64,000 bases of DNA from Limonium bicolor (Eukaryota > Streptophyta > Magnoliopsida > Caryophyllales > Plumbaginaceae), in assembly GCA_023374045.1 (NCBI GenBank), contig CM041783.1:96011298-96075297 (forward strand), given 5' to 3'. Every line of letters starts with the position of its first letter. Positions within the stretch are counted from its first letter, which is position 1. The notes under the pieces are model-generated. The model was not told the origin of the DNA, did no database searches, and saw only the letters and a program-made list of their open reading frames with translations. This document shows positions 29,708 through 59,386 of the stretch, one piece after another. A program made the position numbers and the translations under genes.

Positions 29708-29798
29708 TGTAACACCCCTACTACGCGCCTAACAATAAATACAGTCGCAGCGGAAATGACCAACTATACAACAACTAACAAATTGGTGTTACAACGCC

Positions 29799-29820
29799 GT
29801 TAACCACCCACGTGGTTAAC
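29799..29820 (-). promoter_or_regulatory. LTR 3'-end hairpin, element 3 3' LTR
   Basis: The arms GTTAACCAC and GTGGTTAAC differ from the element 1 stem at one base pair, G-C replaced by A-T on both sides, so pairing is kept. Confidence 0.7.
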
Positions 29821-31073
29821 TAGGCAGAATAAATAACAACGTATCGGTCTGATGATCAGACTCCCGAGCAATAGGACCCAACATCCAAGCATAACCATAA
29901 CCATTAAAACCGAGTATTTAATTACATACCGTCTACAACATAACATCCTCCACCGTCAACTAACAGTACCAAAATATAACGCCACGGGAGCACAGGCGCA
30001 TCCCGGGCCAACATCCAAAATAAACAAAAGTATCATGGTCTAAACCTACAACCATTCCGCCTCCTCAAGTCTCATCCTGCAATGAAAAAGAAAATGGAGC
30101 CCCCGAGGGGGTCAGCACCTTTGCTGGTATGGCTAACGCGCAGCCCATCGGCTACCGGGATACGCGCAAACCACTTGTCATGATAACATGGAGTTCCTTA
30201 AAACAACCAACATCATATACATGTATTTATTCACCATAACATAGCACATTAACAATCCATAACACCACAAGGTCGGTTCTCACAAGGAACATTCCATCAT
30301 GGTTAGAATACCAAGTGAGCCTAAGGATTTTCATTAATCCCATGTTAAGCTCGTTACATACCTCGTTACCATCCCGTTATTTGAATGGTTAACTTAATCC
30401 CAAGGTGTGTCGGATATAGTGATCCCAAGCACACCGAATAATATACGTATGCCCCTGTGGCCCGACGTGAGTCAGTAACTAGCTTTGGATAAGCTAAGGG
30501 AAGGTTGAAAACCAAATTGGAGAACAACCTATACATACACCAAGAGAGTCGAACCGGATATGATATCGACCCCCGTCCTCACACGCGTGGCCGGAACAGA
30601 CCGGACTCCTCACTCCCCCGGTTAGCACTTGTTAGTGATCATACAAGTGATCTTGTTAAGTCACACACAAGCAAGCATATAGGTCTTGTTAGACACGCCA
30701 AGGGATAGGAGTCACAATAATACATCATCATAATATAACAACCGTAAACTCTTTTCATGCCTTAATCTTGTAAGGTCGTAAACACACAGAAAAGCAAAAC
30801 AGCACAGGCCGGTGTAAACCGGTAGGCAACAGACTGCAAGAAAACCATACCTTGGCCCTTGCCTTGTTTCGTTCCCACCTTGAGTGAATCCTATACACAT
30901 TAGTAAGGTCGGTTAATTAATTATTTAACTTCACACTTACTTTGTATTCCACATGCTTGTATGACATGTTTTAATGCCTATATTACCCTAGGTTACCTTC
31001 ATTAACAACCTAGGGTTAACTACATAAGTCACATTCTTTTCTGTTTTTTTTTTTACAAGTTTTGGTCCGACCG

Positions 31074-31324
31074 ACCCACCGTCCGACCCACAACTGGGTC
31101 GGACCCTCCCAGTGGTCTTCGGGTCTGAAAAACTTTACCTTGACCGACCACGTCCGACCCAACCTTCTGGGTCGGTCCATGTGCGAACATTTTCCTAACT
31201 TTTACAGAGGCTCGACCGACCCATGTCCGACCCACCCTTCTGGGTCGGACCGTCACCGAACATCTTCCTAACATTTTACAGAGACTCGACCGACCCACAA
31301 ACTGGGTCGGCCCCTGGGTCGGTC
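31074..31324 (-). repeat. Hairpin array in element 3 3' LTR (GGGTCGG class)
   Basis: About four units of the form CCGACCCA...TGGGTCGG are separated by short spacers, just after a poly-T run at about 31043. This class is not found in the other LTR of the same element. Confidence 0.85.
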
Positions 31325-33425
31325 GCCTACTAAACTTACCTAAACTTGCCAATTCTTCACCAAACTTCTCCTAAGGCCTCTTAATGCTTCCTAGCAACAT
31401 TTGGTAACCTTACATCCACATACAACATCCATGAAACTCATTTTCTAATTCCTTAAACATTTACTTATTTCCTTGTAAAAATTCCTTAACACTTATGTTA
31501 TTTTATACTAGGTTCCTAGATGGTGTTTCTCACCTATGGTAACTACTATCCCAAAATGCTTTCTCACCACCACAACATCATCTCTAAAGCATTATTTCTC
31601 ACCAACCTAAACTCTAGTTAATGTCTAAGTCCTTTTGTTTACCTAGAACACTCTAACATAGTTTCTCCTCTAGTAACACCTAGTCATTTTCTAACATCTC
31701 TAGTTCACCAACCCTACATTAATACCTAGAACTCCTTAGATATTTCCTAAATTTTGACATGGGTTCTCCTAGAACATTACTAAGCCTAAACACTTTGTTT
31801 TCTTCATGAAACACACAAGAATACCTAAAATCACCAAGAACACTCTCATACACCAAACTTCACCAAGTTTACACTACACCACAATATTGTGCATAATTTA
31901 AATTTGCATGGCACTTAGGCCCTTAAATTGCTCAAACCATAAACACTGAATTTCCTCACAATATATATGCCTTTAACCTGCAAATACACTCAACAACATA
32001 TATGCCCCTTTACTAAGTTCTTGAGAACACTTTACTAAGTCATTCACCATTTGCTCTTTAGGTAGTTTTAATAAGCATTTATAAGTTCATTTCTCCTAAG
32101 GCATTAAACAACATTAGGTTAGTATTTTTACCTCTTTTCCAACCAAACTTCTTTCTTGTTTCCTTTAGAAAACCGATAGAGTACTTGATTCTTTGACAAG
32201 CTCTAAACAATATACAAACATTATAATGAGTATTCAAGCTATAAGCTCCATCTCATTGTAAACCCTAGTTTCACATTATTTCAAAAACATCAATGTGATT
32301 GTTTTACCTTGATCTTTGAAGAGAGTTTGAATGTCTATGAAGAGAGGACTCCACCTAGTCCAAGAAGGGTTGAAATGAAGCTAGAACAAGGTCACATAAA
32401 GAGCTCCTTCAATATGTATTTTCGGTTATGGCAAAAACAAGGAGGAAACTTGATTTTTATTTGAGATTCCTTACCTAGAAGCCAAGGAGAGTAATAATAT
32501 GTAGAAGAACAAGCTCAAGCTCCTTCAATGGTGGAACTCCATGGCACCGAAATGGTTGTCTTGAAGTTTTAAGGAGATAGAAATGAAGAGCTTGATGCAA
32601 GGAAGAGAATGGTGGTTGTTTGTTCTTGATTTGGACAAATGAGCAAGATTTGACAAGAGCTTGAAGTTGGAGTTTCAATGGTGGTAGTGGTATTACCGAG
32701 AGAGAGCAAGAAGAGAGGTAGAGGTGGTGTTTGCAAACCGTGGGAATGAAGAAAGAAATGAGAATGAGATAGGATTTGCTTTTGTAAGATATTTGTTAAT
32801 AAAGTAAGTAAATAGTACTTAACTTGTCATCTTTATTTAACTAATGAGCTAACAAGAGTGGTGAGTCACCACCCTTAAAAAACCGGCCCCCAATAGTAAT
32901 ATGAGGGTGTTTTAGTCTTTGTTTGTCAATTTAATTACTTAATACAACATATGTTATAAACTAGCTTGTAAAAGTTACTATTCACAATACAAGGCACATA
33001 GAAGTGAAATTTTTGATTTCCCACTAATATAGCCACCCAAATGTGATACTATATAGTACACATATATATTTAAGAGTAATGATGGACATTTAGCCATTCA
33101 AAACTCATTTACAAGACAATTTTTCAAAAACGTGCTTTAAGACTTCTTAAAGCACATTTTGTGTTTTAACTTGTTTTCAAGCTTGGTTTTCTTTGGTAAT
33201 TGATTTAATATGTTCATTAATATATAAATGAAGTCTTGGTAAGCTTACCAAGCCTTAACCAAGCTTATCCCAAGCTTAGAGCATTTTTCGCCCTAAATAA
33301 CCTTTAAGGTAATTACTTGTATTTTCTGTGTTTTAAATTGTTTGCTAATGTTTCTAAGACTCTTTTTAGTCTTAATAAATCATGTTTTAATGTTTAAATA
33401 ACATTTTAAGGTTTGGGGTATTTCA

Positions 33426-33462
33426 ATCTACCCCCCTTAAAAGAACTTTGTCCCCAAAGTTC
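33426..33462 (-). promoter_or_regulatory. 3' polypurine tract plus hairpin, element 3
   Basis: CTTTTAAGGGGGGTAGAT abuts the LTR on the minus strand. The adjacent stem at 33443-33462 has arms GAACTTTG and CAAAGTTC, a compensated version of the element 1 stem. Confidence 0.85.
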
Positions 33463-33715: not shown

Positions 33716-35224
33716 CTAAGAAGTAAACAATGACGGGTACTTCGCCTTCATCTTGTCTTCCAGCTCCCAGGTGGCCTCCTCGACGTCCTGGTTAGACCAG
33801 AGAACCTTCACCAGTCTCACGGACTTATGGCGAGTGTCTCGAGTCTTAGTATCCAGAATCTGTACGGGAGTCTCCACTGATCGCATGGTCGGCTCTAGGG
33901 TTAGCCTCTCAGGCTGAAGCACATGAGACGGATGAGATATATACTTCTTCAGCTGGGACCATGAAATACATCATGTACCTTGCCCAGCTCGGCGGGTAGG
34001 TCAAGTCTGTAAGCTACCGGGCCGATCCGCTCCGTCACACATAAGGACCTACATATTTCGGGCTCAATTTGCCCTTCTGGCCAAAACGAAATACTCCCTT
34101 CATGGGGGACACTCTCAAAATACCTGATCGCCTACAGCGAACTCCAGGTCACGTCTGCGTACATCAGCGTACGACTTCTGTCTATCCTGAGCTGCTTTCA
34201 TATTAGCCCTGATCTGGCGAACTTCTGCCTGAACTTGCTCAAGATACTCTGGTCCTATAATGACCGTCTCACTCGACTCATCCCAGCATAAAGGCGTGCG
34301 GCACGGTCTACCGTACAATGCCTGGAAGGGAGACATCTGATCGAAGCGTGATAACTGTTGTTGTAACTAAACTCGATCAGATGTAACTTATCAATCCAGC
34401 TGGTCTGAAAGTCAAGTGCACATGCACGTAGCATATCCTCAAGTGTCTGTATAGTGCGCTCACTCTGACCATCTGTCTGTGGGTGAAACGCCGTACTCAA
34501 TTTCAGCTCAGTACCCAAGTGCTCTCTTGTAGACTTCCAATCTCATAAATATCTGGATTATCTGGTATCTCTATCAGATACTATCGTCTTGGGTACACCA
34601 TGATGTCTTACAATCTCTTTGTCAAATAGCTTCTGCAACTTTGCCACTTTCCAGGTGTCCCTCATCGGAATGAATCGGGCCACCTTGGTCAGTCGGTCTA
34701 CCACCACCCAAATCATATTCAGACCTCCCCTTGTAGGCGGAAGCCCTACTACAAAATCCATAGATATGTCATGAAATTTCCACTCTGGCACTGGCATTGC
34801 TGCACCATACCACCAGGCCGTCGGTGCTCAAACTTGACCTTCTGACAAGTGAGACACCTCAACACATAATCATTAACATCCTTTTTCATACCGGTCCACC
34901 AAAAATAACGTTTCATGCCCTTATACATCTTTGAAGCTCCGGGTGAATCGAAGTCGTAGAACTATGGGATTCACTGAGTATGCGCTCCTTCAGCTCAGCG
35001 CTACTCCTCGGTATACACAACCGGCCATTAAGCCTAATCAGGTCATCATCGTGGAGTCTGAAGTCGTACTTCTGACCCTCGAATGTGCCATCAATAAGCT
35101 TCTGTCTAATCTCCACCATATACTGATCTGCCATCTGAGCACTCCGCACCTCTTCAACCAAGCTAGTATGAGAGACTAGCGAATGGAGAGAGTGAGCTCG
35201 GCGACTCAGTGCGTCAGCTACCAC
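33716..35224 (-). pseudogene. Integrase with chromodomain-like tail, element 3 (frameshifted)
   Basis: Catalyses insertion of the retrotransposon cDNA. Pieces appear in several frames: the RNase H end and linker ([12 protein letters not shown], 34913-35224), an H2C2 zinc-binding region around 34840-34950 (YFWWTGM and CLTCQKVK are readable), the catalytic core (VVVDRLTKVARFIP and IVSDRDTR at 34558-34797; HPQTDGQSERTIQTLEDMLR at 34255-34518), a further core and linker part (34115-34336), and a C-terminal segment at 33716-33922 with VLWSNQDVEEATWELE, typical of the chromodomain of these elements. The core acidic residues D, D and E are all present, but in different reading frames. As read, no functional protein is possible. 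Confidence 0.85.
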
Positions 35225-35511
35225 ATTTGCTTTCCCCTCCTTGTATTGTAAGTTAATTCATAATCATTTAAGAATTCAACCCACCTTCTCTGCCTCATGT
35301 TCAACTCTTTCTGAGTGAACAAGTATTTCAAACTCTTGTGGTCAGAATAGATCGTCACACTTACCCCATACAAATAATGTCGCCACATCTTCAATGCGAA
35401 GACGATGGCACCCAATTCCAAGTCGTGGGTAGGATAGTTCTCCTCGTGCTTCTTCAGCTGTCGGGAGGCGTATGCTACGACCTTCCCGTGCTGCATCAAC
35501 ACACAACCCAT
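35218..35511 (-). CDS. RNase H domain of pol, element 3
   Basis: Degrades the RNA strand during reverse transcription. The 97-residue ORF reads through the typical chromovirus RNase [39 protein letters not shown] with the conserved D-x-E-L element, and [20 protein letters not shown] with its Asp. It is separated from RT by a frameshift near 35590 and from the integrase by another near 35230, so it is a fragment of the pol polyprotein rather than an independent gene. Confidence 0.85.
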
Positions 35512-35585
35512 ACCTCTGCCTGATGCGTCGCAGTAGACCTCAAAACCATCTGGACCGTCTGGTATAGTCAGAACTGGTGCAGATG

Positions 35586-36272
35586 TCAGAGCATCCTTGA
35601 GACTCTGAAAGAGATCTCACAGTCGTCTGTCCACTCGAATGGTGCATCCTTCTTCATCAAGGAAGTCATCGGCTTCGAGACACTGGAGAAGTCCTTCACA
35701 AATCTCCTATAATAACCTGCCAGACCGAGGAAGCTCCTGATATCGGTAACTGTCTTCGGCCTTGGCCAGGTGCGCACAGCATCTATCTTTGCCGGATCCA
35801 CAGCGATTCCGGCCTCAGAAATAACATGTCCAAGGAAAGATACTTGGTTCAACCAAAACTCACACTTTGAAAATTTTGCATACAGCTGATTCTTTCTCAA
35901 TGTTTGTAGCACATCTCTCAGGTGGCTTTCATGCTCACCTCTCGATTTCGAATATATAAGTATGTCGTCGATGAAGACTACCACTGATTTGTCCAACTGA
36001 TCTTGGAACAAACGGTTCATTAAGTCCATGAACTTCGCTGGTGCATTTGACAAGCCAAACGGCATAACTGTGAACTCATAATGCCCATACCTAGTTCTGA
36101 ATGCTGTTTTCTCAATGTCACTGTCACGGATGGCAATCTGATGATATCCTGACCGTAGGTCTATCTTAGAGAATACTGATGCTCCCCTAAGCTGATCAAA
36201 TAGATCGTCGATGCGTGGTAAGGGGTAACGGTTTTCACCGTAACAGCATTCAGCTCTCGATAATCTATACAT
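35586..36272 (-). CDS. Reverse transcriptase palm and thumb, element 3
   Basis: Copies the element RNA into DNA. Homology starts at about 36230 ([15 protein letters not shown]) and runs through [11 protein letters not shown], the [20 protein letters not shown] region and the catalytic [13 protein letters not shown] (an F-x-D-D box, usual for gypsy RT), then [11 protein letters not shown] and the thumb [20 protein letters not shown]. The first residues of the ORF are out of frame for RT and come from the neighbouring frame. The catalytic acidic residues are all present. The frame breaks before RNase H. Confidence 0.92.
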
Positions 36273-36535
36273 AGGCGGAGGCTACCGTCCTTCTTCTTCA
36301 CGAAGAGGACCGGCGCTCCCCATGGTGACACACTAGGGCGGATAAAGCCCTTGTCCAGTAGGTCTCTCAGCTGCTCCTTGAGCTCTGTCATTTCTGCTGG
36401 AGCCATACGGTATGGTGCTTTCGCAATTGGTCCGGTGCCCGGAATCAAGTCAATCTCGAATTCAACCTCTCGTGCTGGCGGCATGCCCGGCAGTTCCTTA
36501 GGAAATACATCAGGAAACTCCGAGACTACCGGCAC
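36161..36535 (-). CDS. N-terminal part of reverse transcriptase, element 3
   Basis: It reads [20 protein letters not shown], a hallmark of the protease-RT linker, then [37 protein letters not shown] and [16 protein letters not shown], the finger subdomain of gypsy RT. At about 36225 a frameshift moves the homology into the frame of 35586-36272. Just upstream, another frame change separates it from the protease ORF at about 36530-36540. Confidence 0.92.
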
Positions 36536-37173
36536 ATCTGGCTAAACTCAGGGTCTCTCTCTATGTCCTGGACATAGCAGAGGTATACATCATTTCCCCG
36601 TCGTAACTCACGATACATGGCCATGGCGGTGATGATCTGTGTCGAAGGCTCCCTGGGCCTCTGGCGGTAAGATATAGTAACCCCAGATGGACTCCTAAGA
36701 AGCAGTCGATGCTCGGCACATAGGATTCTGCCCTTGTACCGCTCCAACCAGTTCATCCCGACAATCACATCAAAACCCAGTCCGTCGAACTCTATCAAGT
36801 CGATCGGAAACTCCTCATCCATGATTCGAACAATAGCATCTCGGTAGTAGCGGGTACATCTGATCTGCTCTTTCGACGGGAGAGTGACCACGAAGTCTGG
36901 CATCTCTTCACCGTCTAACCCCAGCCTCTTCGCAAATGATAGCGAAATGAATGTGTGTGAGGCTCCAGAGTCGAACAAGATCGATGCATCCACGCCATTC
37001 ACTGGAAAGGTACCGGTGAGGATTGTGCCGCTCTTGCCGGCTTCTGCCTTATTGCAGACACTCAGTATACCTCCCGTTCCGAGTGCACAGCCTAGTTTAA
37101 TTGGCAAACGTATAAGTATACGGTAGTAACACGATTGATATACTCCAAAACACATCCCTTTATTTATTAACAT
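36526..37173 (-). CDS. Aspartic protease domain, element 3
   Basis: Processes the polyprotein. The 215-residue ORF has the retropepsin active-site motif [11 protein letters not shown] (catalytic Asp68) after [14 protein letters not shown], and the second conserved strand [13 protein letters not shown] at about residue 133. The first 30 residues do not look like gag-pol; they read from the non-coding stretch left of the AlkB stop, so the ATG is probably not a native start. An AG at 37092-37093 (minus-strand CTAG) lies just before the part that looks genuine ([19 protein letters not shown]), which would fit a splice acceptor. Confidence 0.88.
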
Positions 37174-37270
37174 ACTTCCTTACACCATAAGTTGGTTACA
37201 TTGTGGATATTGCTACGTATAGCATCCTTAACACATAACTGGATTAATAGATTACATGATTACATAGGGC

Positions 37271-37645
37271 TTAAAACTGCCTGAAAGTCAAATTCAAACG
37301 TCCTGGTTTCATATGCGTGGCATTGATCACTGCCGACGGTGCGGTATTCAGTTTGATCTTCTTGATACCGTGGTATAACATCCTTGATTGTCCTCCCATT
37401 ATTAACACATCACCTGATTTCAACACTAGCTTCCTTGCGAGATCACCACGCTTCTGCTCGCCATAGTTAAATACTGCTGTGTCACCAATGGACCAAGACA
37501 CCACGGGTACTCCCTTACTTAGAGACTCGGGTGACTCGTCCTTATCTTGGTGTAATCCTAGTCTTCCACCTTTCTGGTAGAAGTTCACAATACATAGGTC
37601 CGCTTTAACACTTGGAATTGAATCCTTTTTCAGCTTGCTGAGCAA
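37271..37645 (-). CDS. AlkB-like 2-oxoglutarate/Fe(II) dioxygenase domain captured in element 3
   Basis: AlkB-family enzymes oxidatively remove methyl groups from nucleic acid bases using Fe(II) and 2-oxoglutarate. This 124-residue ORF is the catalytic C-terminal half of such a domain. N21-F-Y23 occupies the position of the Asn/Tyr pair that binds 2-oxoglutarate, H32-Q-D34 is the H-x-D iron motif within LGLHQDKDES, H92 in LYHGI is the distal iron ligand, and R116 and R122 in GRLNLTFRQF are the two closing arginines. SGDVLIMGGQSR matches the family's conserved strand. The ending GRLNLTFRQF and the SLSKGVP stretch resemble plant ALKBH1-type proteins more than bacterial AlkB (from memory of the family). 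It lies in the same orientation as gag and pol, has its own stop codon and no visible intron. Activity is unproven, since the N-terminal half is frameshifted. Confidence 0.9.
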   Translation of the reverse strand: MLSKLKKDSIPSVKADLCIVNFYQKGGRLGLHQDKDESPESLSKGVPVVSWSIGDTAVFNYGEQKRGDLARKLVLKSGDVLIMGGQSRMLYHGIKKIKLNTAPSAVINATHMKPGRLNLTFRQF

Positions 37646-37909
37646 TTCCTACGGTGTGGTTAACAACCGCAAGGAACTCCTCAGGTATACCTGGTACAGT
37701 TGCTCCAAGTTCTCCTTGCATCGCCTGATGATGTGGATTTGCGCTTCGGGTGTCATGTATCCCAAAATTTTTTAAGAGGATACCATACCTGGTTGGATAA
37801 CCTGACATTGCTCCATTGGAAAGTCGGTGATGCTGATAGTGGTTTCTTCAGGGTTTGGTGTGGGCGGGATTGGATAACAGATATTGAAGGTTCCTAAGGT
37901 TTCCAACAT
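37646..37909 (-). pseudogene. Frameshifted N-terminal part of the AlkB-like protein
   Basis: From an ATG at 37909 the minus strand reads METLG-like residues only after one codon (MLETLGTFNICYPIPP), then VIQPGMV. The next homologous stretch ILLKNFG is in another frame, and TPEAQIHIIRRCKE is back in the first. GIPEEFLAVVNHTVGIAQ then leads to the core ORF, which is in yet another frame at about 37640. Between RRCKE and IPEEF there are only a few residues, where ALKBH1-type proteins have several tens that include part of the substrate-binding lid, so an internal deletion is likely. Confidence 0.6.
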
Positions 37910-38067
37910 TGTCTAGTTTAGGTGTCTTTTATATTATTCCTTAACTCATTAGTTAGGTGGGTGTGTATTTAGACTCTCTAATACACTCATGCATGAAATG
38001 CGGTAAGCAATCACTTTCTCATGTAACAGTTTAGGCGGTACCTGGTCTAGAAGAGGAGCCTGGCGCC

Positions 38068-38391
38068 TCAGACCGGTCCACCACGTTCAGGGCGGCCTTG
38101 CGGACCCCGTACCCTTCCCCTTCTGGGCATCCGTGTACTTCCTGTCAGAGGGCTGCTGGGTGATCGCCTTCGGGCTATCAGTGGTCGCGGTAGTCTTACC
38201 CTTCCACTGACCCTTTGGCCTGTAGTTCTTACTGTTGGGGTTGTGCCAGCACTCAAACTCACGGTGCCCCATCTTCTCACAGTATGACACTTCACGTCAT
38301 TCCCCTTGCAGTCTTTGCCGGGGTGGTCTCCATTGCACCACTTGCAGTAAAAGTGGCGCTCCGGTCCAGAACCCGCGCTAGCTGCGTTCAC
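38068..38391 (-). pseudogene. Gag nucleocapsid zinc knuckles, element 3 (frameshifted)
   Basis: It binds and packages RNA. The first knuckle reads CKWCNGDHPGKDC (C-x2-C-x3-H-x4-C, one residue shorter than the common spacing). The second, CEKMGHREFEC, completes the classical C-x2-C-x4-H-x4-C but is in a different frame (38087-38290), so a one-base shift lies between them at about 38290. A basic tail follows (RPKGQWKGK). A third frame leads to SSSRPG at 38042, next to the intron-like boundary. Confidence 0.75.
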
Positions 38392-38463
38392 AATACATCA
38401 TCAATACTCACTTCCAACTCAAGAACTCATATCTCAATTTATCACACATGTTTAGGTAATTAC
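38382..38463 (-). other. Possible second gag intron (82 nt)
   Basis: The minus strand has AAGG|GTAATT at 38463 and CGCAG|CTAG at 38382, with AT-rich sequence between. Splicing would join two gag parts, but the frames are off by one as read, so this is weaker than the 104-nt case. Confidence 0.3.
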
Positions 38464-38724
38464 CCTTAGGCGGGTGAGAGCGTAAGGCTTCGCCGCATAC
38501 GCGTACGTAAGCTTCAGAGGCTCCTCAGCTGTGGTGGTCTGGGCTTGGCCCTTATCACCCTGATGCTGATTCTTCTGGGGCTGAGGGTAGTGCTTCTTTT
38601 CTTCTTCCCTCCCCCGTATCCTTGCTGGACTTGGCCCTCGTTTGTGGCCTTGCGCTTGTGCGCATTCTCCTCGTCCCTCAGACGGACGGTAATTCTCCAC
38701 CTTAGCAGCGGCATGATAGCACTC
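38464..38724 (-). CDS. Gag middle segment, element 3
   Basis: From 38724 the minus strand reads ECYHAAAKVENYRPSEGRGE and continues open to 38464 with a basic, Gln-rich stretch (GREEEKKHYPQPQKNQHQGD). The HAAAKVENYR-type segment normally follows the gag capsid domain in these elements, just before the knuckles. It connects in frame to the upstream capsid ORF if the 104-nt intron-like segment is removed. Whether that junction is splicing or damage is not proven. Confidence 0.6.
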
Positions 38725-38828
38725 CTGAATTTTAGGACGTCAGTCATGCCCCGCAACACAAAACTCACTAACTCACATTAACATTCACTATCAGTATTAA
38801 CTGATTCATATCACGGTATTTTAATTAC
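38725..38828 (-). other. Intron-like segment inside gag (104 nt, frame-restoring)
   Basis: It is bounded by TTGCAG|GTAATT (38828) and AATTCAG|GAG (38725) on the minus strand and is AT-rich. At 104 nt it is not a multiple of three, and it contains stops. Removal joins ...TLQ to ECYHAAAK... in frame. Its length suits a plant intron. Confidence 0.5.
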
Positions 38829-39503
38829 CTGCAAGGTAGTATACTCAGCTGGTCCCATCCCGTAGCGAAGACGGTAGTTGAGACCATTGTAGAACCGGTT
38901 CACCAACACTCGGTTCGAATATCCAAGGTCTGGCAACAGGTGGATAAGGCCGGTGAATGCTGTATAGTAGTCATCAACCGACATCTTATCCCCCTGCTTC
39001 AGACTGTCAAGCTCGAGGCGCTTGGCCTCCTGCACATGCACCGGGTAATACTTGGCTCGCAGCAGAGCCGTGTACTCCCTCCATCCAAACTCAGGATCAG
39101 TCATCCTGTCCTCCCTCACCAGTTTCCACCAACTCTGTGCCGACCCCTTCAAGTAGTAGGCGGCAAGTCGGACCTTAGCCTCAGCAGGTACGGCCAAAGT
39201 CTCGTAGGCGGTCTCCAGCTCGGAGATGTACGCCTCTAGCTTACGGGGATCGGTCTCCCCATGGAATGATGGCGGCCTCAGATCAGCCAGCGCCTTGACC
39301 CAATTGGTCTCACGTGGCGGTGGTGGTGGTGGCTGAACTCCGGGCTGATGCCCCTGCTGCACCGCAGCTACAATCTGGGGGACCATCTGGGCTACGGCGG
39401 CTGCAACTGCCTCAGCCATAGTCTGTGCCGTAGGGTTCTCGCCCTGGTCACCCATATCTCCAGTACCGCGTCCGCGGCCTCGACCTCGCGGTCTACCTGC
39501 CAT
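38811..39503 (-). CDS. Gag capsid region, element 3
   Basis: Forms the virus-like particle of the retrotransposon. The start ATG is about 200 nt past the primer site, the usual leader length. Residues 3-14 are Arg/Gly-rich (GRPRGRGRGRG). An Ala/Val helix and a proline run (PPPPPP, near 60) follow, and then a Retrotrans_gag-type domain at about residues 75-215 with PPSFHGETDPRKLEAYI, LKGSAQSWWKLV and FGWREYTALLRAKYYP as readable landmarks. The last residues after TLQ (VIKIP) probably read into an intron-like segment. The ORF is open and close to the family's usual gag capsid length. Confidence 0.9.
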   Translation of the reverse strand: MAGRPRGRGRGRGTGDMGDQGENPTAQTMAEAVAAAVAQMVPQIVAAVQQGHQPGVQPPPPPPRETNWVKALADLRPPSFHGETDPRKLEAYISELETAYETLAVPAEAKVRLAAYYLKGSAQSWWKLVREDRMTDPEFGWREYTALLRAKYYPVHVQEAKRLELDSLKQGDKMSVDDYYTAFTGLIHLLPDLGYSNRVLVNRFYNGLNYRLRYGMGPAEYTTLQVIKIP

Positions 39504-39702
39504 CTGAATTCATATGAACATTCATTAGCAACACGCTTGCACACTTATCGGTCCAACGGTAGTAACGTCTCCCGATTATAAGTATTCCCACACTTAGTTA
39601 GTGGTTAACCCGTCCATAACTGCTCACTCCATAAGTATAGTTAGATTTCCTAACTCGGTTTACTCCTATGCTCGGTATTCTAGTCATCAGAGCGATACTT
39701 TC

Positions 39703-39714
39703 GCTCTGATACCA
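39703..39714 (-). promoter_or_regulatory. Primer binding site (tRNA-iMet) within a hairpin, element 3
   Basis: TGGTATCAGAGC (minus strand) lies five bases from the LTR. The half ATCAGAGCGA pairs with TCGCTCTGAT just downstream, a perfect 10-bp stem with a 5-nt loop. Confidence 0.92.
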
Positions 39715-39810
39715 CTTTTTGTAACACCCCTACTACGCGCCTAACAATAAATACAGTCGCAGCGGAAATGACCAACTAAACAACAACTAACAAATTGGTG
39801 TTACAACGCC

Positions 39811-39832
39811 GTTAACCACCCACGTGGTTAAC
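39811..39832 (-). promoter_or_regulatory. LTR 3'-end hairpin, element 3 5' LTR
   Basis: The arms GTTAACCAC and GTGGTTAAC are the same compensated stem as at 29799-29820. Confidence 0.7.
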
Positions 39833-41080
39833 TAGGCAGAATAAATAACAACGTATCGGTCTGATGATCAGACTCCCGAGCAATAGGACCCAACATCCAA
39901 CATAACCATAACCATTAAAACCGAGTATTTAATTTACATACCGTCTACAACATAACATCCTCCACCGTCAACTAACAGTACCAAAATATAACGCCACGGG
40001 AGCACAGGCGCATCCCGGGCCAACATCCAAATAAACAAAAGTATCATGGTCTAAAACCTACAACCATTCCGCCTCTTCAAGTCTCATCCTGCAATGAAAA
40101 AGAAAATGGAGCCCCCGAGGGGGTCAGCACCTTTGCTGGTATGGCTAACGCGCAGCCCATCGGCTACCGGGATACGCGCAAACCACTTGTCATGATAACA
40201 TGGAGTTCTTTAAAACAACCAACATCATATACATGTATTTATTCACCATACATAGCATTAACAATCCATACACCACAAGGTCGGTTCTCACAAGGAACAT
40301 TCCATCATGGTTAGAATACCAAGTGAGCCTAAGGATTTTCATTAATCCCATGTTAAGCTCGTTACATACCTCGTTACCATCCCGTTATTTGAATGGTTAA
40401 CTTAATCCCAAGGTGTGTCGGATATAGTGATCCCAAGCACACCGAAATAATATACGTATGCCCCTGTGGCCCGACGTGAGTCAGTAACTAGCTTTGGATA
40501 AGCTAAGGGAAGGTTGAAAACCAAATTGGAGAACAACCTATACATACACCAAGAGAGTCGAACCGGATATGAATCGACCCCCGTCCTCACACGCGTGGCC
40601 GGAACAGACCGGACTCCTCACTCCCGGTTAGCACTTGTTATGATCATACATGGAGTCGTTTGTTAGTCACACACACAAGCATATAAGTCTTGTTAGACAC
40701 GCCAAGGGATAGGAGTCACATTCATACATCATCATAATATAAACAACCGTAAACTCTTTTCATGCCTTAATCTTGTAAGGTCGTAAACACACAGAAAAGC
40801 AAACAGCACACAGGCCGGTGTAAACCGGTAGGCAACAGACTGCAAGAAAACCATACCTTGGCCCTTGCCTTGTTTCGTTCCCACCTTGAGAGAATCCTAT
40901 ACACATTAGTAAGGTCGGTTAATTAATTATTTAACTTCACACTTACTTTGTATTCCACATGCTTGTATGACATGTTTTAATGCCTATATTACCCTAGGTT
41001 ACCTTCATTAAACACCCTAGGGTTAACTACATAAGTCACATTCTTTTCTGTTTTTTTTTTTTTTTTTTTTACAAGTTTAG

Positions 41081-41410
41081 GTCCGACCGACCTTGCCGAC
41101 CGAACTTACCCAAGTTCGGTCGATTCCAGAATACATTTCCGTTAAAATTATTTCCTACTCCGACCGAACTTACCAAGTCCGTCCTATGTTCGGTCTTTTC
41201 CCGAGAGTTTCTCCCCTTTGTAAATTTAGCCCGACCGAACTTACCAAGTCCGGTCCTAAGTTCGGCCTTTTCCAGTAAGTCAATCCGTACTCAAAATACA
41301 GGCCCGACCGACCTTGCAAGTCCGGTCCCCAATCGGTCTTTTCCAGAAGCCAATTCTCGCAGGGTAAACTGGGCTCGACCGAACTTGCAATTTCGTCGCA
41401 AGTTCGGTCT
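41081..41410 (-). repeat. Hairpin array in element 3 5' LTR (AAGTTCGGTC class)
   Basis: About five units of the form GACCGAACTT...AAGTTCGGTC follow a long poly-T run (41051-41070). Both the units and their spacers match the array at 59059-59386 in element 6 (reverse complement) and not the array in the other LTR of element 3. Confidence 0.85.
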
Positions 41411-43508
41411 GCCCCCAGACCCTTTGTTTTTTCCTTTTTACATTCAACTCCAACTTCACCCCCATATAACCTAACACTCCCTAACCTCATTTGGGCACTT
41501 TAAACACACCTTAAGACATCCTTAAACACTCATAAAACTCATTTTCTAATTCCTTAAGCCTTTTATTCCTTCACAAATTTCCTAACACTTATGTTATTCT
41601 ATACTAGGTTCCTAGATGTGTGTTTCTCACCTATGGTAACTACTATCCCAAAATGCTTTCTCACACCACTACAACATCATCTCTAAAGCATTATTTCTCA
41701 CCAACCTAAACTCTAGTTAATGTCTAAGTCCTTTTGTTACCTAGAACACTCTAAGACATAGTTTCTCCCTCTAGTAACACCTAGTCATTTTCTAACATCT
41801 CTAGTTCACCAAACCCTTACATTAATACCTAGAACTCCTTAGATATTCCTAAATTTTGACATGGGTTCTCCTAGAACATTACTAAGCCTAAACACTAACT
41901 TTGTTTTCTTCATCAAACACACAAGAATACCTAAAATCACCAAGACACTCTCATACACCAAAACTTCACCAAGTTTACACTACACCACAAATTTGCATAT
42001 TTAAATTTGCATGGCACTTAGGCCCTTAATTGCTCAAACCCATAAACACTGAATTTCCTCAACAATATATATGCCTTTAACCTGCAAATACACTCAACAA
42101 CATATATGCCGCCCCTTTTACTAAGTTCTTGAGAACACTTTACTAAGTCATTCACCATTTGCTCTTTAGGTAGTTTTAATAAGCATTTATAAGTTCATTT
42201 CTCCTAAGGCATTAAACAACATTAGGTTAGTATTTTTTACCTACCTCTTTTCCAACCAAACTTCTTTCTTGTTTCCTTTAGAAAACCGATAGAGTACTTG
42301 ATTCTTTGACAAGCTCTAAACAATACAAACATTATAAGAGTATTCAAGCTAGCTCCATCTCAATTGTAACCCCTAGTTTCACATTATTTCAAAAACTCAA
42401 TGTGATTGGTTTTACTTGATCTTTGAAGAGAGTTTGAATGTCATGAAGAGAGGACTCCACCTAGTCCAAGAAGGGTTGAAATGAAGCTGAACAAGGTCAC
42501 ATAAAGAGCTCCTTCAATATGTATTTTCGGTTATGGCAAAAACAAGGAAACTTGACTTTTATTTGAGATTCCTTACCTAGAACCAAGGAGAGTAATAATA
42601 TGTAGAAGAACAAGCTCAAGCTCCTTCAATGGTGGAACTCCATGGCACCGAGATGGTTGTCTTGAAGTTTTAAGAAGATAGAAATGAAGAGCTTGATGCA
42701 AGGAAGAGAATGGTGGTGTTTGTTCTTGATTTGGACAAGTGAGGAAGATTTGCAAGAGATTGAAGTTGGAGTTTCAATGGTGTAGTGGTATTACCGAGAG
42801 AGAGCAAGAAGAGAGGTAGAAGGTGGTGTTTGCAAACCGTGGGAATGAAGGAAAGAAATGAAATGAGATGGATTGCTTTTGTAGATATTTGTTAATAAAG
42901 TAAGTAAATAGTACTTAACTTGTCATCTTATTTAACTAATGAGCTAACAAGAGTGGTGAGTCACCACCCTTAAAAACCGGCCCCCAATAGTAATATGAGG
43001 GTGTTTTAGTCTTTGTTTGTCAATTTAAATTACTTAATACAACATATGTATAACTAGCTTGTAAAAGTTACTATTCACTTATACAAGGCACATAGAAGTG
43101 AAATTTTTGATTTCCCACTAATATAGCCACCCAAATGTGATACTATATAGACACTATATATTTAAGAGTAATGATGGACATTTAGCCATTCCAAACCATT
43201 TACAACAATTTTCAAAACGTGCTTTAAGACTTCTTAACACATTTGTGTTTTTAACTTGTTTTCAAAGCTTGTTTTCTTTGGTAATTGATTTAATATGTTC
43301 ATTAATATATAAATGAAGTCTTGGTAAGCTTACCAAGCCTTAACCAAGCTTCCCAAGCTTAGAGCATTTTTCGCCCTAAATAACCTTTAAGGTAATTACT
43401 TGTATTTTCTGTGTTTTAAATTGTTTGCTAATGTTTCTAAGACTCTTTTTAGTCTTAATAAATCATGTTTTAATGTTTAAATAACATTTTAAGGTTTGGG
43501 GTATTTCA

Positions 43509-53729: not shown

Positions 53730-54773
53730 CTACTGCTCGAAATGGGCGGGAAACTTGGATCGCACTTCACTCTCCAACTCCCAAGTCGCTTCCTGCTCTG
53801 ACTGACCCGACCACTGGATCTTGACCAAAGGCATGGTCTTACTCCGGAGCTTACGAACAGCTCGAGCCAAAATCTTTAGAGGCACTGCTTCATAAGTGAA
53901 GTCCTCTCTAAGCTGAAGCGGACCGAACTCTATCACATGAGATGGGTCCGGAATATACTTCCTCAGCATAGACACGTGCAAGACACTGTGAACTCTAGCC
54001 AACGATGGTGGCAATGCTAAACGATAGGCAACCGGTCCGATCCTCTCTAAGATCTCAAAAGGACCCACAAAACGAGGGCTAAGCTTGCCTCTCTTCCCAA
54101 ACATCACAACACCTCGGACTGAGGAGACCTTCAAACAAACGTGATCGCCCACCTCAAACTCTAAAGGTCGTATCTTCTGATTGACATAGCTCTTCTGACG
54201 ACTCTGAGCCACAAGCAAGCGCTCCCTGATAGTCTGTATCTTCCCCACAGCATCCTGGACCAGGTCTGGTCCAACCATGGCCCTCTCCTTCAGATCATCC
54301 CAACAGATGGGTGATCTGCATCTCCTACCATACAAGGCCTCGAACGGGGCCATCCCGATGCTAGTCTGGAAGCTATTATTATAGACGAACTCTATCAAGG
54401 CAACGTGCTGGTCCCAGCTGCCTCCAAAGTCAAGCACACATGCTCTGAGCATATCCTCAAGGACCTGATTCGTCCTCTCTGTCTGCCCATCTAACTGAGG
54501 ATGATACGCTGAACTGAAAGACAACTTCGTCCCCAAAGCCTGATGCAAACTCTGCCAGAATCTGGACACGAACCTCGGGTCTCTATCAGACACAATAGTA
54601 GCAGGAACTCCATGAAGGCGTATGATCTCGTCTATATATAACTGAGCCAGGCTATGCAAATTGTAGGTCTTCCTGACTGGCAAGAAATGGGCACTCTTCG
54701 TGAGTCTATCCACAGTAACCCATACGACGTCGAAACCTGTCAGAGTTTTAGGCAGACCCATGACAAAATCCAT
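53730..54773 (-). CDS. Integrase core and chromodomain, element 5
   Basis: Inserts element cDNA into the genome. The 347-residue ORF is intact through the catalytic core: D22 in VTVDRLTKSAHFLPV, D63 in IVSDRDPRF and E99 in HPQLDGQTERTNQ, with the 35-residue gap expected for DD35E. It continues with FEALYGRRCRSPICW, VGDHVCLKVS and the GPY/F-type region (FVGPFEILERIGPVAYRLAL, about 240-260). The C-terminal segment VKIQWSGQSEQEATWELESE is the readable part of a chromodomain, a module that steers integration to marked chromatin. The ORF's ATG is internal to the polyprotein; a stop or frameshift separates it from the zinc-binding part upstream. Confidence 0.95.
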   Translation of the reverse strand: MDFVMGLPKTLTGFDVVWVTVDRLTKSAHFLPVRKTYNLHSLAQLYIDEIIRLHGVPATIVSDRDPRFVSRFWQSLHQALGTKLSFSSAYHPQLDGQTERTNQVLEDMLRACVLDFGGSWDQHVALIEFVYNNSFQTSIGMAPFEALYGRRCRSPICWDDLKERAMVGPDLVQDAVGKIQTIRERLLVAQSRQKSYVNQKIRPLEFEVGDHVCLKVSSVRGVVMFGKRGKLSPRFVGPFEILERIGPVAYRLALPPSLARVHSVLHVSMLRKYIPDPSHVIEFGPLQLREDFTYEAVPLKILARAVRKLRSKTMPLVKIQWSGQSEQEATWELESEVRSKFPAHFEQ

Positions 54774-54882
54774 GCTGACACTCTCTCATTTCCACTCTGA
54801 AACTGGAAGAGACTGAAGCAGACCTGCTGGTCTCTGATGCTCCGCCTGGACCTGCTGGCAGGTCTGGCATCTGGACACAAAA

Positions 54883-55325
54883 TCAGATATATCTCTCTTC
54901 ATATTGCTCCCACCAAAAGGTCTCTCGAAGGTCTCGGTACATCTTCACACCTCCTGGGTGTACCAAGTACGGAGCTTCATGAGCCTCCTGCATGATCACT
55001 CGCCTCAAGGCATCATCAGCAGGCACACAGACATGGTCATTGAATCTCAGACAGCCATCCTCTGAAATTCTGAACTCAGACTCCTGACCAGAAGTAATAC
55101 TCTCTCTGATCTTACCCAAACTGGCGTCGAGCTCCTGACTGCCAACATCCCAGACCTCTCTGGACGGACGACCCAGATACCCATACGCTGCAACTCGAGA
55201 GCAGACATCTGCACACCAGACAAGGCACAAACAGCTCCAAATGGACCCATCCTACTGAGCGCATCAGCAACTACATTCGCTCTACCAGGATGGTAGAGGA
55301 TCTCCAAATCGTAATCGTGCAGCAA
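54883..55325 (-). pseudogene. RNase H end, linker and integrase zinc-binding region, element 5
   Basis: Two overlapping frames carry it. In 55047-55325 it reads [25 protein letters not shown], the end of the RNase H and linker. After a frame change, 54883-55230 reads CLRFNDHVCVPADDALRRVI and [20 protein letters not shown], the H..H half of the H2C2 zinc finger. The C..C half follows beyond a stop at about 54880. A few small indels or errors are enough to explain the breaks. Confidence 0.8.
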
Positions 55326-55351
55326 CTCTAGCCACCTCCTCTACCTCAAGT

Positions 55352-56170
55352 TCAACTCCTTCTGAGTGAACAAGTACTTGAGGTCTTGTGGTCCATATAT
55401 ACCTTGCACGATGCCCCATAAAGGTAGTGCCTCCATATCTTCAGGGCAAATACAACAGCAGCTAACTCCAGATCATGGGTCGGGTAATTCTTCTCATATG
55501 GCTTCAACCGACGAGAGCCATATGCAACCACCTTCCCATGCTCCATTAGAACGCACCCAAGTCCCTTATGGGACAGATAACAGAAAACCTCCAGTCCGTC
55601 AGTACCCTCTGGAAGGGTCAGAATCGGTGCAGTAGTCAACCTCTTCTTCAGCTCCTGAAAACACTGCTCACAGGCCTCACTCCACTCAAACTTCACATCC
55701 TTCTGTAGCAGATGAGTCAAAGGGATCACTAGCTTGGAGAAGCCCTCCACAAACTTACGATAATAGCCCGCTAATCCAAGGAAGCTACGAATATCTCCAA
55801 CATTAGTGGGCATGGCCCACTCTATAATGGCTCTAATCTTCTCCGGGTCCATGGAGATACCATCCTTGGAGACAACATGTCCCAAGAACACCACTTGATC
55901 CAACCAGAACTCACACTTCTTCAGCTTCGCGTACAATTCCTTCTCCCTCAGAGTCTGGAGAACAGTCCTCAGATGCTCCTCGTGCTCCTCAGCACTCTTG
56001 GAATACACCAAGATGTCATCAATAAACACCACCACGAACTGGTCTAGAAATGGCTTGAACACCCGGTTCATCATATCCATAAATACAGAAGGCGGATTCG
56101 TCAGACCGAATGGCATCACTAGGAACTCGTAGTGTCCATAACGAGTCATGAAAGCGAACTTAGGCATCAT
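55352..56170 (-). CDS. Reverse transcriptase and RNase H, element 5
   Basis: The 272-residue ORF covers [20 protein letters not shown], the catalytic [24 protein letters not shown], the thumb [20 protein letters not shown], the connection [18 protein letters not shown] and the RNase H start ([34 protein letters not shown]). It ends in a frameshift after MDHKT, where the next RNase H Asp region should follow. Upstream, the finger domain is in another frame. Confidence 0.93.
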
Positions 56171-56579
56171 CTGCCTTAATCCTCAGCTGATGGTAACCAG
56201 ACCTCAGATCGATCTTAGAAAACACCTTAGCTCCAGCTAGCTGATCGAACAAGTCATCAATGCGCGGGAGAGGATACCTATTCTTAACGGTAACCTTACT
56301 GAGCTCCCTATAGTCAATGCACAAGCGCATGCTACTATCCTTCTTCTTAACAAATAAAACGGGCGCTCCCCAAGGTGACACACTAGGGCGAATAACGCCC
56401 TTGTCCAACAGCTCCTGCAACTGGATCTTCAGCTCCTTAAGCTCAGCAGGCACCATCCGGTATGGGGCCTTAGAAATCGGCTGAGTCTCAGGTGCGAGTT
56501 CGATCGAGAACTCCAACTTTCTGATAGGGGGAAGCCCAGGCACGTCATCTTGGAACACGTCGGGGTAGTCTCTGACCAC
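56160..56579 (-). CDS. N-terminal reverse transcriptase, element 5
   Basis: It reads [18 protein letters not shown] (the protease-RT linker hallmark), [54 protein letters not shown] and [14 protein letters not shown]. The same frame is open upstream to 56634 ([16 protein letters not shown]) and is cut there by element 6. Continuation into the palm needs a one-base frame change near 56165. Confidence 0.93.
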
Positions 56580-59058: not shown

Positions 59059-59386
59059 GACCGAACTTGCGACCGGACTTGCAAGTTCGGTCGAGCCCAG
59101 TTTACCCTGCGAGAATTGGTTTCTGGAAAAGGCCGACCTTGGGGACCGGACTTGCAAGGTCGGTCGGGCTTGTATTCTGTGTACGGATTGAGTTACTGGA
59201 ACCGACCGAACATGGGACCGGACCTGGTAAGTTCGGTCGGGCTAAATTTACAAAGGGGAGAAACTCTCGGGAAAAGGCCGAACATAGGACCGGACTTATA
59301 AGTTCGGTCGGAGTGAAAATTTTGACGGAAATGTGTTCTGGAATGGACCGAACTGGACAAGTTCGGTCGGTAAGGTCGGTCGGACC
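59059..59386 (+). repeat. Hairpin array in element 6 LTR
   Basis: About five GACCGAACTT...AAGTTCGGTCGG units occur. Spacers match those in the 5' LTR of element 3. ORFs crossing it on either strand (58957-59408) only translate the repeat. Confidence 0.85.

What the first reader, a model, noticed from the sequence alone, without database searches (positions are those of the whole stretch)
37271..37909. An AlkB-type demethylase domain carried inside a Ty3/gypsy retrotransposon, between gag and protease
Seen: in sense orientation within element 3, a 124-residue ORF has the 2-oxoglutarate pair N-x-Y, iron ligands H-x-D and a distal His, and the R-x5-R motif ending GRLNLTFRQF, with N-terminal homologous pieces upstream. 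Known: AlkB enzymes demethylate bases in DNA or RNA; AlkB domains occur in some plant RNA viruses, and host ALKBH proteins can affect RNA methylation. Inference: the element captured a plant ALKBH1-like transcript, which could help its RNA or cDNA escape methyl marks. I know of no established plant gypsy family with this module.
Basis: partly seen in the sequence, partly recalled or inferred. Interest (0 to 1): 0.92.

Follow-up and report, generated by a model that had tools for sequence, protein, structure and literature searches.

The report
Retrotransposon that splices in a demethylase
Thousands of copies of a jumping gene in an unnamed, likely plant, genome carry an AlkB-type enzyme, predicted to strip methyl groups from RNA or DNA, between their shell-protein gene and their protease gene, and rare genomic copies with exact joins indicate that RNA splicing likely either attaches the enzyme to the shell protein or skips it to make the replication enzymes.

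Summary
In detail: window 37909-37271 (minus strand) encodes an AlkB domain between gag and protease of a Ty3/gypsy element with LTRs at 43508-39720 and 33425-29708. It is a family trait. In the window's own 2.92-Gb genome an AlkB DNA pattern has 8,834 matches and a protease-start pattern 6,672. AlkB precedes protease in 24 of 24 AlkB-selected copies and in 8 of 8 copies chosen by protease alone. All seven catalytic residues are kept in 33 of 33 copies; dN/dS among sampled copies is 0.10-0.19.

AlkB lies in a GT-AG intron and has no start codon at its front. One donor at the end of gag faces two in-frame acceptors, before AlkB and before protease. The genome holds 12 exact gag|AlkB joins and 13 exact gag|protease joins; a false join gives 0. 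Both gag|protease copies read lost all three introns. So alternative splicing likely makes Gag-AlkB or Gag-Pol.

AlkB-bearing Gypsy elements are known in Phalaenopsis (ALKBH5-like separate ORF, Ogre/Tat-related). This is a separate ALKBH1-type acquisition with a new expression design. Substrate and benefit are untested.

The parts
39720..43508 (-). 5' LTR of element 3 (sense TGAAATACCCC...GGGGTGTTACA)
   Evidence: Alignment of the two LTRs, K2P 0.0233 over 3,225 sites; ends located. No matching 5-bp target duplication at the outer ends (read).
39703..39714 (-). primer binding site TGGTATCAGAGC, just inside the 5' LTR
   Evidence: recognition as the initiator-tRNA-Met type is recalled.
38829..39509 (-). 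gag exon 1 (capsid domain)
   Evidence: Pfam Retrotrans_gag 2.7e-18; frame open to the intron 1 donor.
38725..38828 (-). gag intron 1 (CAG|GTAAT...TCAG|GAGTG)
   Evidence: both sites found in 18 of 24 loci scanned; exactly missing in joined copies L060 and L061.
38464..38724 (-). gag exon 2
38382..38463 (-). gag intron 2 (AAGG|GTAATT...GCAG|CTAGC)
   Evidence: acceptor found in 17 of 24 loci scanned, donor too in 14 of them; missing in L060 and L061, retained in L062.
38042..38381 (-). gag exon 3 with zinc knuckle(s), ends ...SSRP at the shared splice donor
   Evidence: frame disrupted in this copy.
37092..38041 (-). intron 3, donor CCAG|GTACC, acceptor for protease AACTAG|GCTGTG; contains the AlkB exon
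   Evidence: donor CAG|GTA in 23 of 24 loci and protease acceptor in 22 of 24; exact gag|protease joins at 13 genomic places.
37271..37893 (-). N-terminal third broken in this copy; C-terminal 125 residues intact
   Evidence: exact gag|AlkB joins at 12 genomic places.
36526..37091 (-). protease exon, start of the pol frame
   Evidence: RVP_2 8.8e-29.
35586..36541 (-). reverse transcriptase (frame broken in this copy)
   Evidence: RVT_1 1.3e-30 for 35586-36281.
35218..35616 (-). RNase H
   Evidence: RT_RNaseH 1.3e-36.
34115..34827 (-). integrase pieces
   Evidence: rve 0.0012, 19.5 bits, below the cut-off 32.6.
33716..33970 (-). C-terminal chromodomain-like piece
   Evidence: Pfam Chromo 6.8e-5, 23.2 bits against cut-off 25.1.
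33427..33438 (-). polypurine tract AAGGGGGGTAGA
29708..33425 (-). 3' LTR of element 3

Best explanation
A Ty3/gypsy family, likely a plant chromovirus, carries an ALKBH1-type AlkB exon between gag and protease inside a predicted intron, and alternative splicing from one donor at the end of gag likely makes either a Gag-AlkB fusion or the Gag-Pol polyprotein. Shown: AlkB sits at this place in every copy examined; its catalytic residues and protein sequence are under purifying selection; the AlkB frame has no start codon ahead of its conserved front motif in the copies that could be read; donor and both acceptors are conserved and mostly phase-matched; and genomic copies exist with the exact gag|AlkB join and with the exact gag|protease join, two of the latter read and found to lack all three introns. 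Inferred: those copies come from reverse transcription of spliced element RNA; RNA that keeps intron 3 gives Gag alone, because a gag-frame stop follows soon after the donor; Gag would carry AlkB into the virus-like particle; and there AlkB would remove N-methyl groups from the element's RNA or cDNA, relieving host silencing or damage that blocks reverse transcription.
For: Recurrence: 8,834 AlkB-pattern and 6,672 protease-start-pattern matches in the own genome, reversed controls 0; zinc knuckle, AlkB, protease and RT in this order in 24 of 24 AlkB-selected loci (a gag capsid match lies upstream in 20 of 24); AlkB upstream of 8 of 8 protease-selected places. Selection: dN/dS 0.19 among those 8 (28 pairs) and 0.10-0.12 between subfamilies; 33 of 33 copies keep the seven catalytic residues; the window's own changes avoid conserved columns. 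Wiring: donor 23/24, AlkB acceptor 23/24, protease acceptor 22/24, and a gag-frame stop within 60 bases of the donor in 23 of 23; AlkB acceptor phase 1 in 17 of 20 and protease acceptor phase 1 in 14 of 15 placed; no Met before the AlkB anchor in 18 of 18 readable copies, no in-frame ATG in 20 of 23 by a second count. Joins: gag|protease 13 places, gag|AlkB 12 places, false join 0; L060 and L061 lack introns 1-3 exactly; L062 reads gag into AlkB in frame. Fold: OsALKBH1 TM 0.93, on an intact relative from another source.
Against: No transcript, protein or activity was seen. The joins are in genomic copies, so a precise deletion is not formally excluded, and the places are not all independent (C2:386603596 and C2:386613665 lie 10 kb apart, C2:353436698 and C2:353445878 9 kb apart). 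Only 2 of 13 gag|protease and 1 of 12 gag|AlkB places were read. L062 keeps intron 2 and at least the end of intron 1, so the RNA of that copy was only partly spliced. Another possible AlkB acceptor 18 bases upstream, my first guess, was not searched. In subfamily A an internal Met ahead of the full Pfam domain could start a shorter AlkB without any fusion. 3 of 23 copies show an ATG in the tested stretch. Of the 8 protease-selected copies only 2 have an AlkB frame free of stops and shifts. The gag phase in subfamily B is unclear. The substrate is unknown.
Confidence: 0.68

Rival explanations
1. AlkB is expressed as a free protein from intron-retaining RNA, for example from the internal Met in subfamily A, and the gag|AlkB join is a by-product.
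For: In subfamily A (for example L006) the first Met lies just ahead of the full Pfam domain. The Phalaenopsis AlkB is a separate ORF (PMC9289625).
Against: In subfamily B as read in L011 the first Met lies inside the lid region. Codons ahead of the first Met in A are themselves constrained, dN/dS 0.15 among the 8 protease-selected copies, though on only 25 codons and 0.33 in the AlkB-selected set. The acceptor is conserved and mostly in phase, and its exact join to gag is found at 12 places.
Confidence: 0.2
2. AlkB acts on host RNA or DNA (m6A, or 6mA as proposed for rice ALKBH1), weakening host silencing in trans, rather than on the element's own nucleic acids.
For: Closest solved relative is OsALKBH1, reported as a 6mA eraser, active on ssDNA and possibly RNA (PMC8118384 passages).
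Against: Fusion to Gag would place it with the element's own RNA. Not tested here.
Confidence: 0.3
3. AlkB repairs alkylation damage (1-methyladenine, 3-methylcytosine) in element RNA or cDNA, as proposed for AlkB of plant RNA viruses.
For: The fold of P0001 is also close to E. coli AlkB (TM 0.80-0.88 by target); repair was proposed for viral AlkB (cited in PMC9289625).
Against: No damage assay possible; does not explain why a plant ALKBH1 type was kept.
Confidence: 0.3
4. AlkB is a passenger: the segment matters only as an intron that tunes the Gag to Gag-Pol ratio.
For: Intron 3 does separate gag from pol, as in Ogre where an intron lies between GAG-PROT and RT (PMC6317226 passage).
Against: dN/dS 0.10-0.19 and 33 of 33 copies with all catalytic residues are not expected of a spacer.
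Confidence: 0.03
5. A single accidental insertion or retrogene inside one dead element.
For: Only one copy in the window, broken in its N-terminal part.
Against: Thousands of pattern matches, 8 of 8 protease-selected copies with AlkB at the same junction, no flanking duplication.
Confidence: 0.01

Closest known systems
Phalaenopsis Gypsy_Pa_2799 family (PMC9289625; outline, abstract and sections 4, 12, 13, 14, 17 read)
   Same: A plant Ty3/gypsy family that amplified an AlkB domain with all cofactor residues; about 88 Mb of the P. aphrodite assembly.
   Different: There: Ogre/Tat-related, about 25 kb, gag-pol in one ORF, AlkB C-terminal in a separate ORF2, ALKBH5/9/10-like with tested m6A activity. 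Here: chromodomain-like piece, about 13.8 kb in the window, AlkB between gag and protease within an intron, ALKBH1-type, gag split by two further introns.
Ogre elements of legumes (PMC6317226 passages; the 2008 splicing paper was not held)
   Same: An intron interrupts the coding region and splicing of a subset of transcripts allows the whole polyprotein.
   Different: Ogre's intron lies between GAG-PROT and RT and is not described there as holding an enzyme; here it lies between gag and protease and holds an alternative AlkB exon.
EVADE Ty1/copia element (review PMC12786077, passages)
   Same: Alternative splicing generates a subgenomic RNA of an LTR element.
   Different: Different superfamily; no captured enzyme mentioned in the passages seen.
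Rice OsALKBH1 (5xeg, 5xoi)
   Same: Closest solved structure, 1.9e-70 for L006 AlkB, TM 0.93 for relative P0001.
   Different: A host gene; the element clade stands apart with 100/100 support.
AlkB domains of plant RNA viruses (as cited in PMC9289625)
   Same: A selfish element that carries AlkB.
   Different: RNA viruses; no sequence comparison made here.

Membership tests
AlkB family (2OG-Fe(II) dioxygenase, PF13532) | Pfam match over the curated cut-off, full domain | tested here: met
   Window C-terminal part 125.2 bits vs 31.2, model 82-194 of 194; 150 of 150 scored own-genome matches span model 1-194 above cut-off, 149 without a stop inside.
AlkB family (2OG-Fe(II) dioxygenase, PF13532) | N-x-Y, H-x-D...H and R-x5-R | tested here: met
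   33 of 33 copies, broken frames read in pieces.
AlkB family (2OG-Fe(II) dioxygenase, PF13532) | demethylase activity | not testable with these tools
   No assay.
plant ALKBH1 type (OsALKBH1-like) | closest to OsALKBH1 by sequence and fold | tested here: met
plant ALKBH1 type (OsALKBH1-like) | descent from a particular host ALKBH1 gene | tested here: inconclusive
   Clade 100/100 on a long stem (0.73, 0.58), place among land-plant ALKBH1s unresolved; the own host gene could not be searched.
ALKBH5/9/10 type (that of Phalaenopsis elements) | closest to ALKBH5 by sequence or fold | tested here: not met
   No ALKBH5 chain among 21 PDB sequence matches at E <= 0.01; ALKBH5 folds match P0001 only at TM 0.57-0.61 by target, 15-16% identity.
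Ty3/gypsy chromovirus | gag, PR-RT-RH-INT order, LTRs, PBS, PPT | tested here: met
   the integrase match is weak in this copy.
Ty3/gypsy chromovirus | chromodomain | tested here: inconclusive
   Chromo 6.8e-5 but 23.2 bits, under the cut-off 25.1, in this broken copy.
Tekay/Del clade | RT phylogeny | not tested
   Resemblance recalled only; no reference RT tree was run.
Phalaenopsis Gypsy_Pa_2799 family | AlkB in a separate ORF2; gag-pol in one ORF; Tat/Ogre RT with dual RNase H | tested here: not met
   AlkB between gag and protease; introns in gag; RT placement and dual RNase H were not tested.
Ogre-type intron regulation | intron between PROT and RT | tested here: not met
   Intron 3 lies between gag and protease.

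The most novel reading that the evidence does not exclude
An LTR retrotransposon family has wired a captured ALKBH1-type demethylase as an alternative terminal exon, so that one splice choice decides between Gag-Pol and a Gag-AlkB fusion that is packaged into the particle to clean methyl marks off the genome it carries. It would be an arms-race epitranscriptomic weapon delivered by the capsid, evolved independently of the orchid case.
Probability: 0.45. Interest if true: 0.9.

Novelty: new variant of a known kind. Interest (0 to 1): 0.83.

Why it matters
It is a second, independent capture of an AlkB enzyme by Gypsy elements, from a different AlkB branch and in a differently built element, which suggests that AlkB capture is a recurrent solution and fits the view that methylation of RNA or DNA restrains retrotransposons. 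The splice wiring was not found described for a captured enzyme in the full-text searches made (the library lacks most subscription journals). It makes a direct test possible: Gag-AlkB predicts an enzyme inside the particle. It also shows a method: rare intron-less genomic copies record which RNAs an element splices, without transcript data.

Tried and rejected
Single accidental insertion: rejected by recurrence. Own transposition of the segment: no duplication at the intron ends; one search lists only short or weak repeats in the region. A gag-AlkB-pol fused polyprotein in the protein database: none of 37 long AlkB proteins listed carries a gag, protease or RT Pfam domain. More members of the AlkB clade: among the 120 listed of 2,282 hits I recognised only P0001-P0004 and P0008, with P0005 coming; all are unnamed ENA or Logan contigs whose context could not be read, and not every listed protein was put in a tree. 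Viral contigs: 3 distant loci at 32-35%, not followed. Host ALKBH1 gene in the own genome: not answered. In one search the acceptor was set one base off, so its printed join was in the wrong frame; corrected. In one search the AlkB part was void because of a wrong program flag; one search replaces it. LTR dating: 7 of 10 elements gave 1.5 kb or more (L014 only 1,517 bp), K2P 0.0034-0.0242; L006 gave 562 bp (0.0496) and L010 and L022 none. Sampling bias: the 24 loci are 4 of the 8 cut plus 20 fetched places (which include the other 4), all from the 150 top-scored AlkB matches; the 8 are the first 8 of 100 listed of 6,672 places, exact protease-start matches on one chromosome. Dropped before counts: 4 of 24 loci had no AlkB acceptor placed, 9 no protease acceptor with anchor and 6 no AlkB anchor, pairs with dS of 0.02 or less.

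Full report
1. The observation. The stretch 37271-37909 lies on the minus strand, in the sense of a Ty3/gypsy element with LTRs at 43508-39720 and 33425-29708 (K2P 0.0233 over 3,225 sites). Domains in order are gag, AlkB, protease, RT, RNase H, weak integrase pieces and a weak chromodomain. The C-terminal 125 residues of AlkB are open and match PF13532 at 5e-36 and rice ALKBH1 at 1.1e-39. The N-terminal third is broken in this copy. Are the small frame breaks real? Several repeat pairs show unusually many indels: element 3 LTRs 57 indels (38 of one base) against 74 substitutions, two other window pairs 22 against 22 and 69 against 24, and elements L021, L009 and L015 likewise. That suggests assembly errors. 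Against this, only 4 of the 38 one-base indels lie in runs of 4 or more, and elements L014, L016 and L017 have few gaps (2, 6 and 9 openings). I leave it open.

2. It is a family trait. All 150 scored PF13532 matches there cover the whole domain above the cut-off and 149 have no stop inside; the 38,325 first-look candidates are loose and are not a copy count. An AlkB 26-mer has 8,834 matches and a protease-start 33-mer 6,672, each with up to 3 mismatches and none for the reversed control. The 24 distinct loci (they include the 8) carry zinc knuckle, AlkB, protease and RT in this order in 24 of 24; a gag capsid match lies upstream in 20 (L010, L023 and L024 have none, and that of L031 belongs to the next element of an array). 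To avoid selecting on AlkB I took the first 8 places of the protease-start search: 8 of 8 have AlkB directly upstream, 2 of 8 without stop or frame change. Two subfamilies exist: A (with the window) and B, about 67-71% identical in AlkB.

3. It is under selection. Pairwise NG86 dN/dS is 0.12 between A and B (median of 97 pairs, dS near saturation), 0.17 within A (169 pairs) and 0.17 within B (10 pairs); these loci were picked by AlkB score. The 8 protease-selected copies give 0.19 (28 pairs pooled) and 0.10 against B. The window's C-terminal part gives 0.14 against A; pooled over all readable codons the window gives 0.25 against the 8. Its 15 differences from the clade majority at 98 columns hit 1 of 46 conserved columns (permutation p 0.0012). 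All seven catalytic residues are kept in 33 of 33 copies: 24, 8 and the window. LTR divergence in 7 datable elements of 10 is 0.0034-0.0242; with a recalled rate of 1.3e-8 this is roughly 0.1-0.9 million years, so the family was recently active, while the A-B divergence says that the capture is old.

4. How it is wired. In subfamily A the gag frame runs to ...SSRP at CCAG|GTACCGCCTAA, so a stop begins at the ninth base of the intron; a stop in that frame follows within 60 bases in 23 of 23 loci with a donor. AlkB starts after a conserved AG|GAA acceptor and has no Met before its conserved front motif in 18 of 18 readable copies of 24 (20 of 23 by a second count). A second acceptor TTAG|G opens the protease frame. 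Donor, AlkB acceptor and protease acceptor are found in 23, 23 and 22 of 24 loci; phases fit in 17 of 20 and 14 of 15 placed. In subfamily B the donor CCAG|GTA and acceptor TAG|GAAGC are kept although the bases between have diverged; the gag phase is less clear there, and one B locus, L024, has no donor. Two smaller introns, about 95 and 83 bases, lie in gag.

5. Genomic record of splicing. If element RNA is spliced, some spliced RNA should have been reverse-transcribed. The predicted gag|protease join is found at 13 places, the predicted gag|AlkB join at 12, both with reversed control 0, and a join of the same donor to another AG inside AlkB at 0, all with up to 3 mismatches. The places fall into several sequence variants, so more than one event is likely, but they are not all independent. 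Two gag|protease copies were read; L060 resembles L006 and L061 resembles L020, and both lack introns 1, 2 and 3 exactly. The one gag|AlkB copy read, L062, joins gag to AlkB in frame (...SSRP-GTFNICYP...) but keeps intron 2 and at least the end of intron 1. The first candidate was not searched.

6. Reading. One donor and two acceptors give Gag-AlkB or Gag-Pol; RNA that keeps intron 3 gives Gag (inferred). Fusion to Gag would bring the enzyme into the particle. The enzyme type is OsALKBH1-like: best solved match 1.9e-70 for L006 and TM 0.93 for the intact relative P0001, modelled at mean pLDDT 84.2. OsALKBH1 is described as a 6mA eraser, active on ssDNA and perhaps RNA (PMC8118384 passages). 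Which base is its target here is open.

7. What is known. PMC9289625 (outline, abstract and sections 4, 12, 13, 14 and 17 read) reports Phalaenopsis Gypsy elements with an ALKBH5-like ORF2 and in vitro m6A demethylation; apart from the two Phalaenopsis genomes, none of the 121 angiosperm genomes screened there gave the domain. The review PMC12786077 (passages) names Ogre and EVADE as notable intron-bearing plant LTR elements. [quoted passage not shown] Searches for AlkB with LTR retrotransposon and gypsy, ALKBH with retrotransposon and captured, demethylase domain, spliced Tekay chromoviruses and Gag fusion with alternative splicing and ALKBH listed no other such element by title and abstract; most listed papers were not opened. 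One search found no paper. The library lacks most subscription journals.

8. Verdict. The finding is real and larger than reported. It is a new variant of a known kind: an AlkB-bearing Gypsy family, independent of the orchid one, with an alternative-exon design supported by genomic splice records. Function remains inferred.

Noticed in passing
own genome C1:497439466-497470353: Four AlkB matches with almost equal spacing of about 10.1 kb, which looks like a tandem array of elements sharing LTRs; other pairs about 10 kb apart appear.
   Followed up: partly
window 54265-56480 (minus): Pieces of a related pol (RT 64% identical) without detectable gag or AlkB, next to element-3-like LTR sequence of opposite orientation at 56633-60469.
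   Followed up: no
window 1-26851: Several long repeats 9.1-9.3 kb apart, 97-98.5% identical with gaps, probably other LTR elements, with a further PBS-like site at 22769-22758.
   Followed up: no
whole window and L009, L012, L015, L021: Several repeat pairs have about as many or more gap openings as mismatches (22 and 22, 69 and 24; L021 38 and 16), while L014, L016 and L017 have few; assembly errors in places are possible.
   Followed up: partly
window 31142-31298: A 73-base tandem repeat, 2.1 copies, inside the 3' LTR, in the part where the two LTRs align worst.
   Followed up: no
P0001-P0005, P0008: AlkB proteins of the same clade on unnamed ENA contigs of up to 26.6 kb and a Logan contig: the family may live in other genomes too.
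   Followed up: partly
L001-L003: AlkB relatives at 32-35% identity on IMG/VR viral contigs.
   Followed up: no
C2:386603596 and 11 other places: Copies with the gag|AlkB join have lost the shared donor, so they should not make Gag-Pol by this splice; some may still have multiplied (a neighbour 10 kb away), perhaps helped in trans (inference).
   Followed up: no
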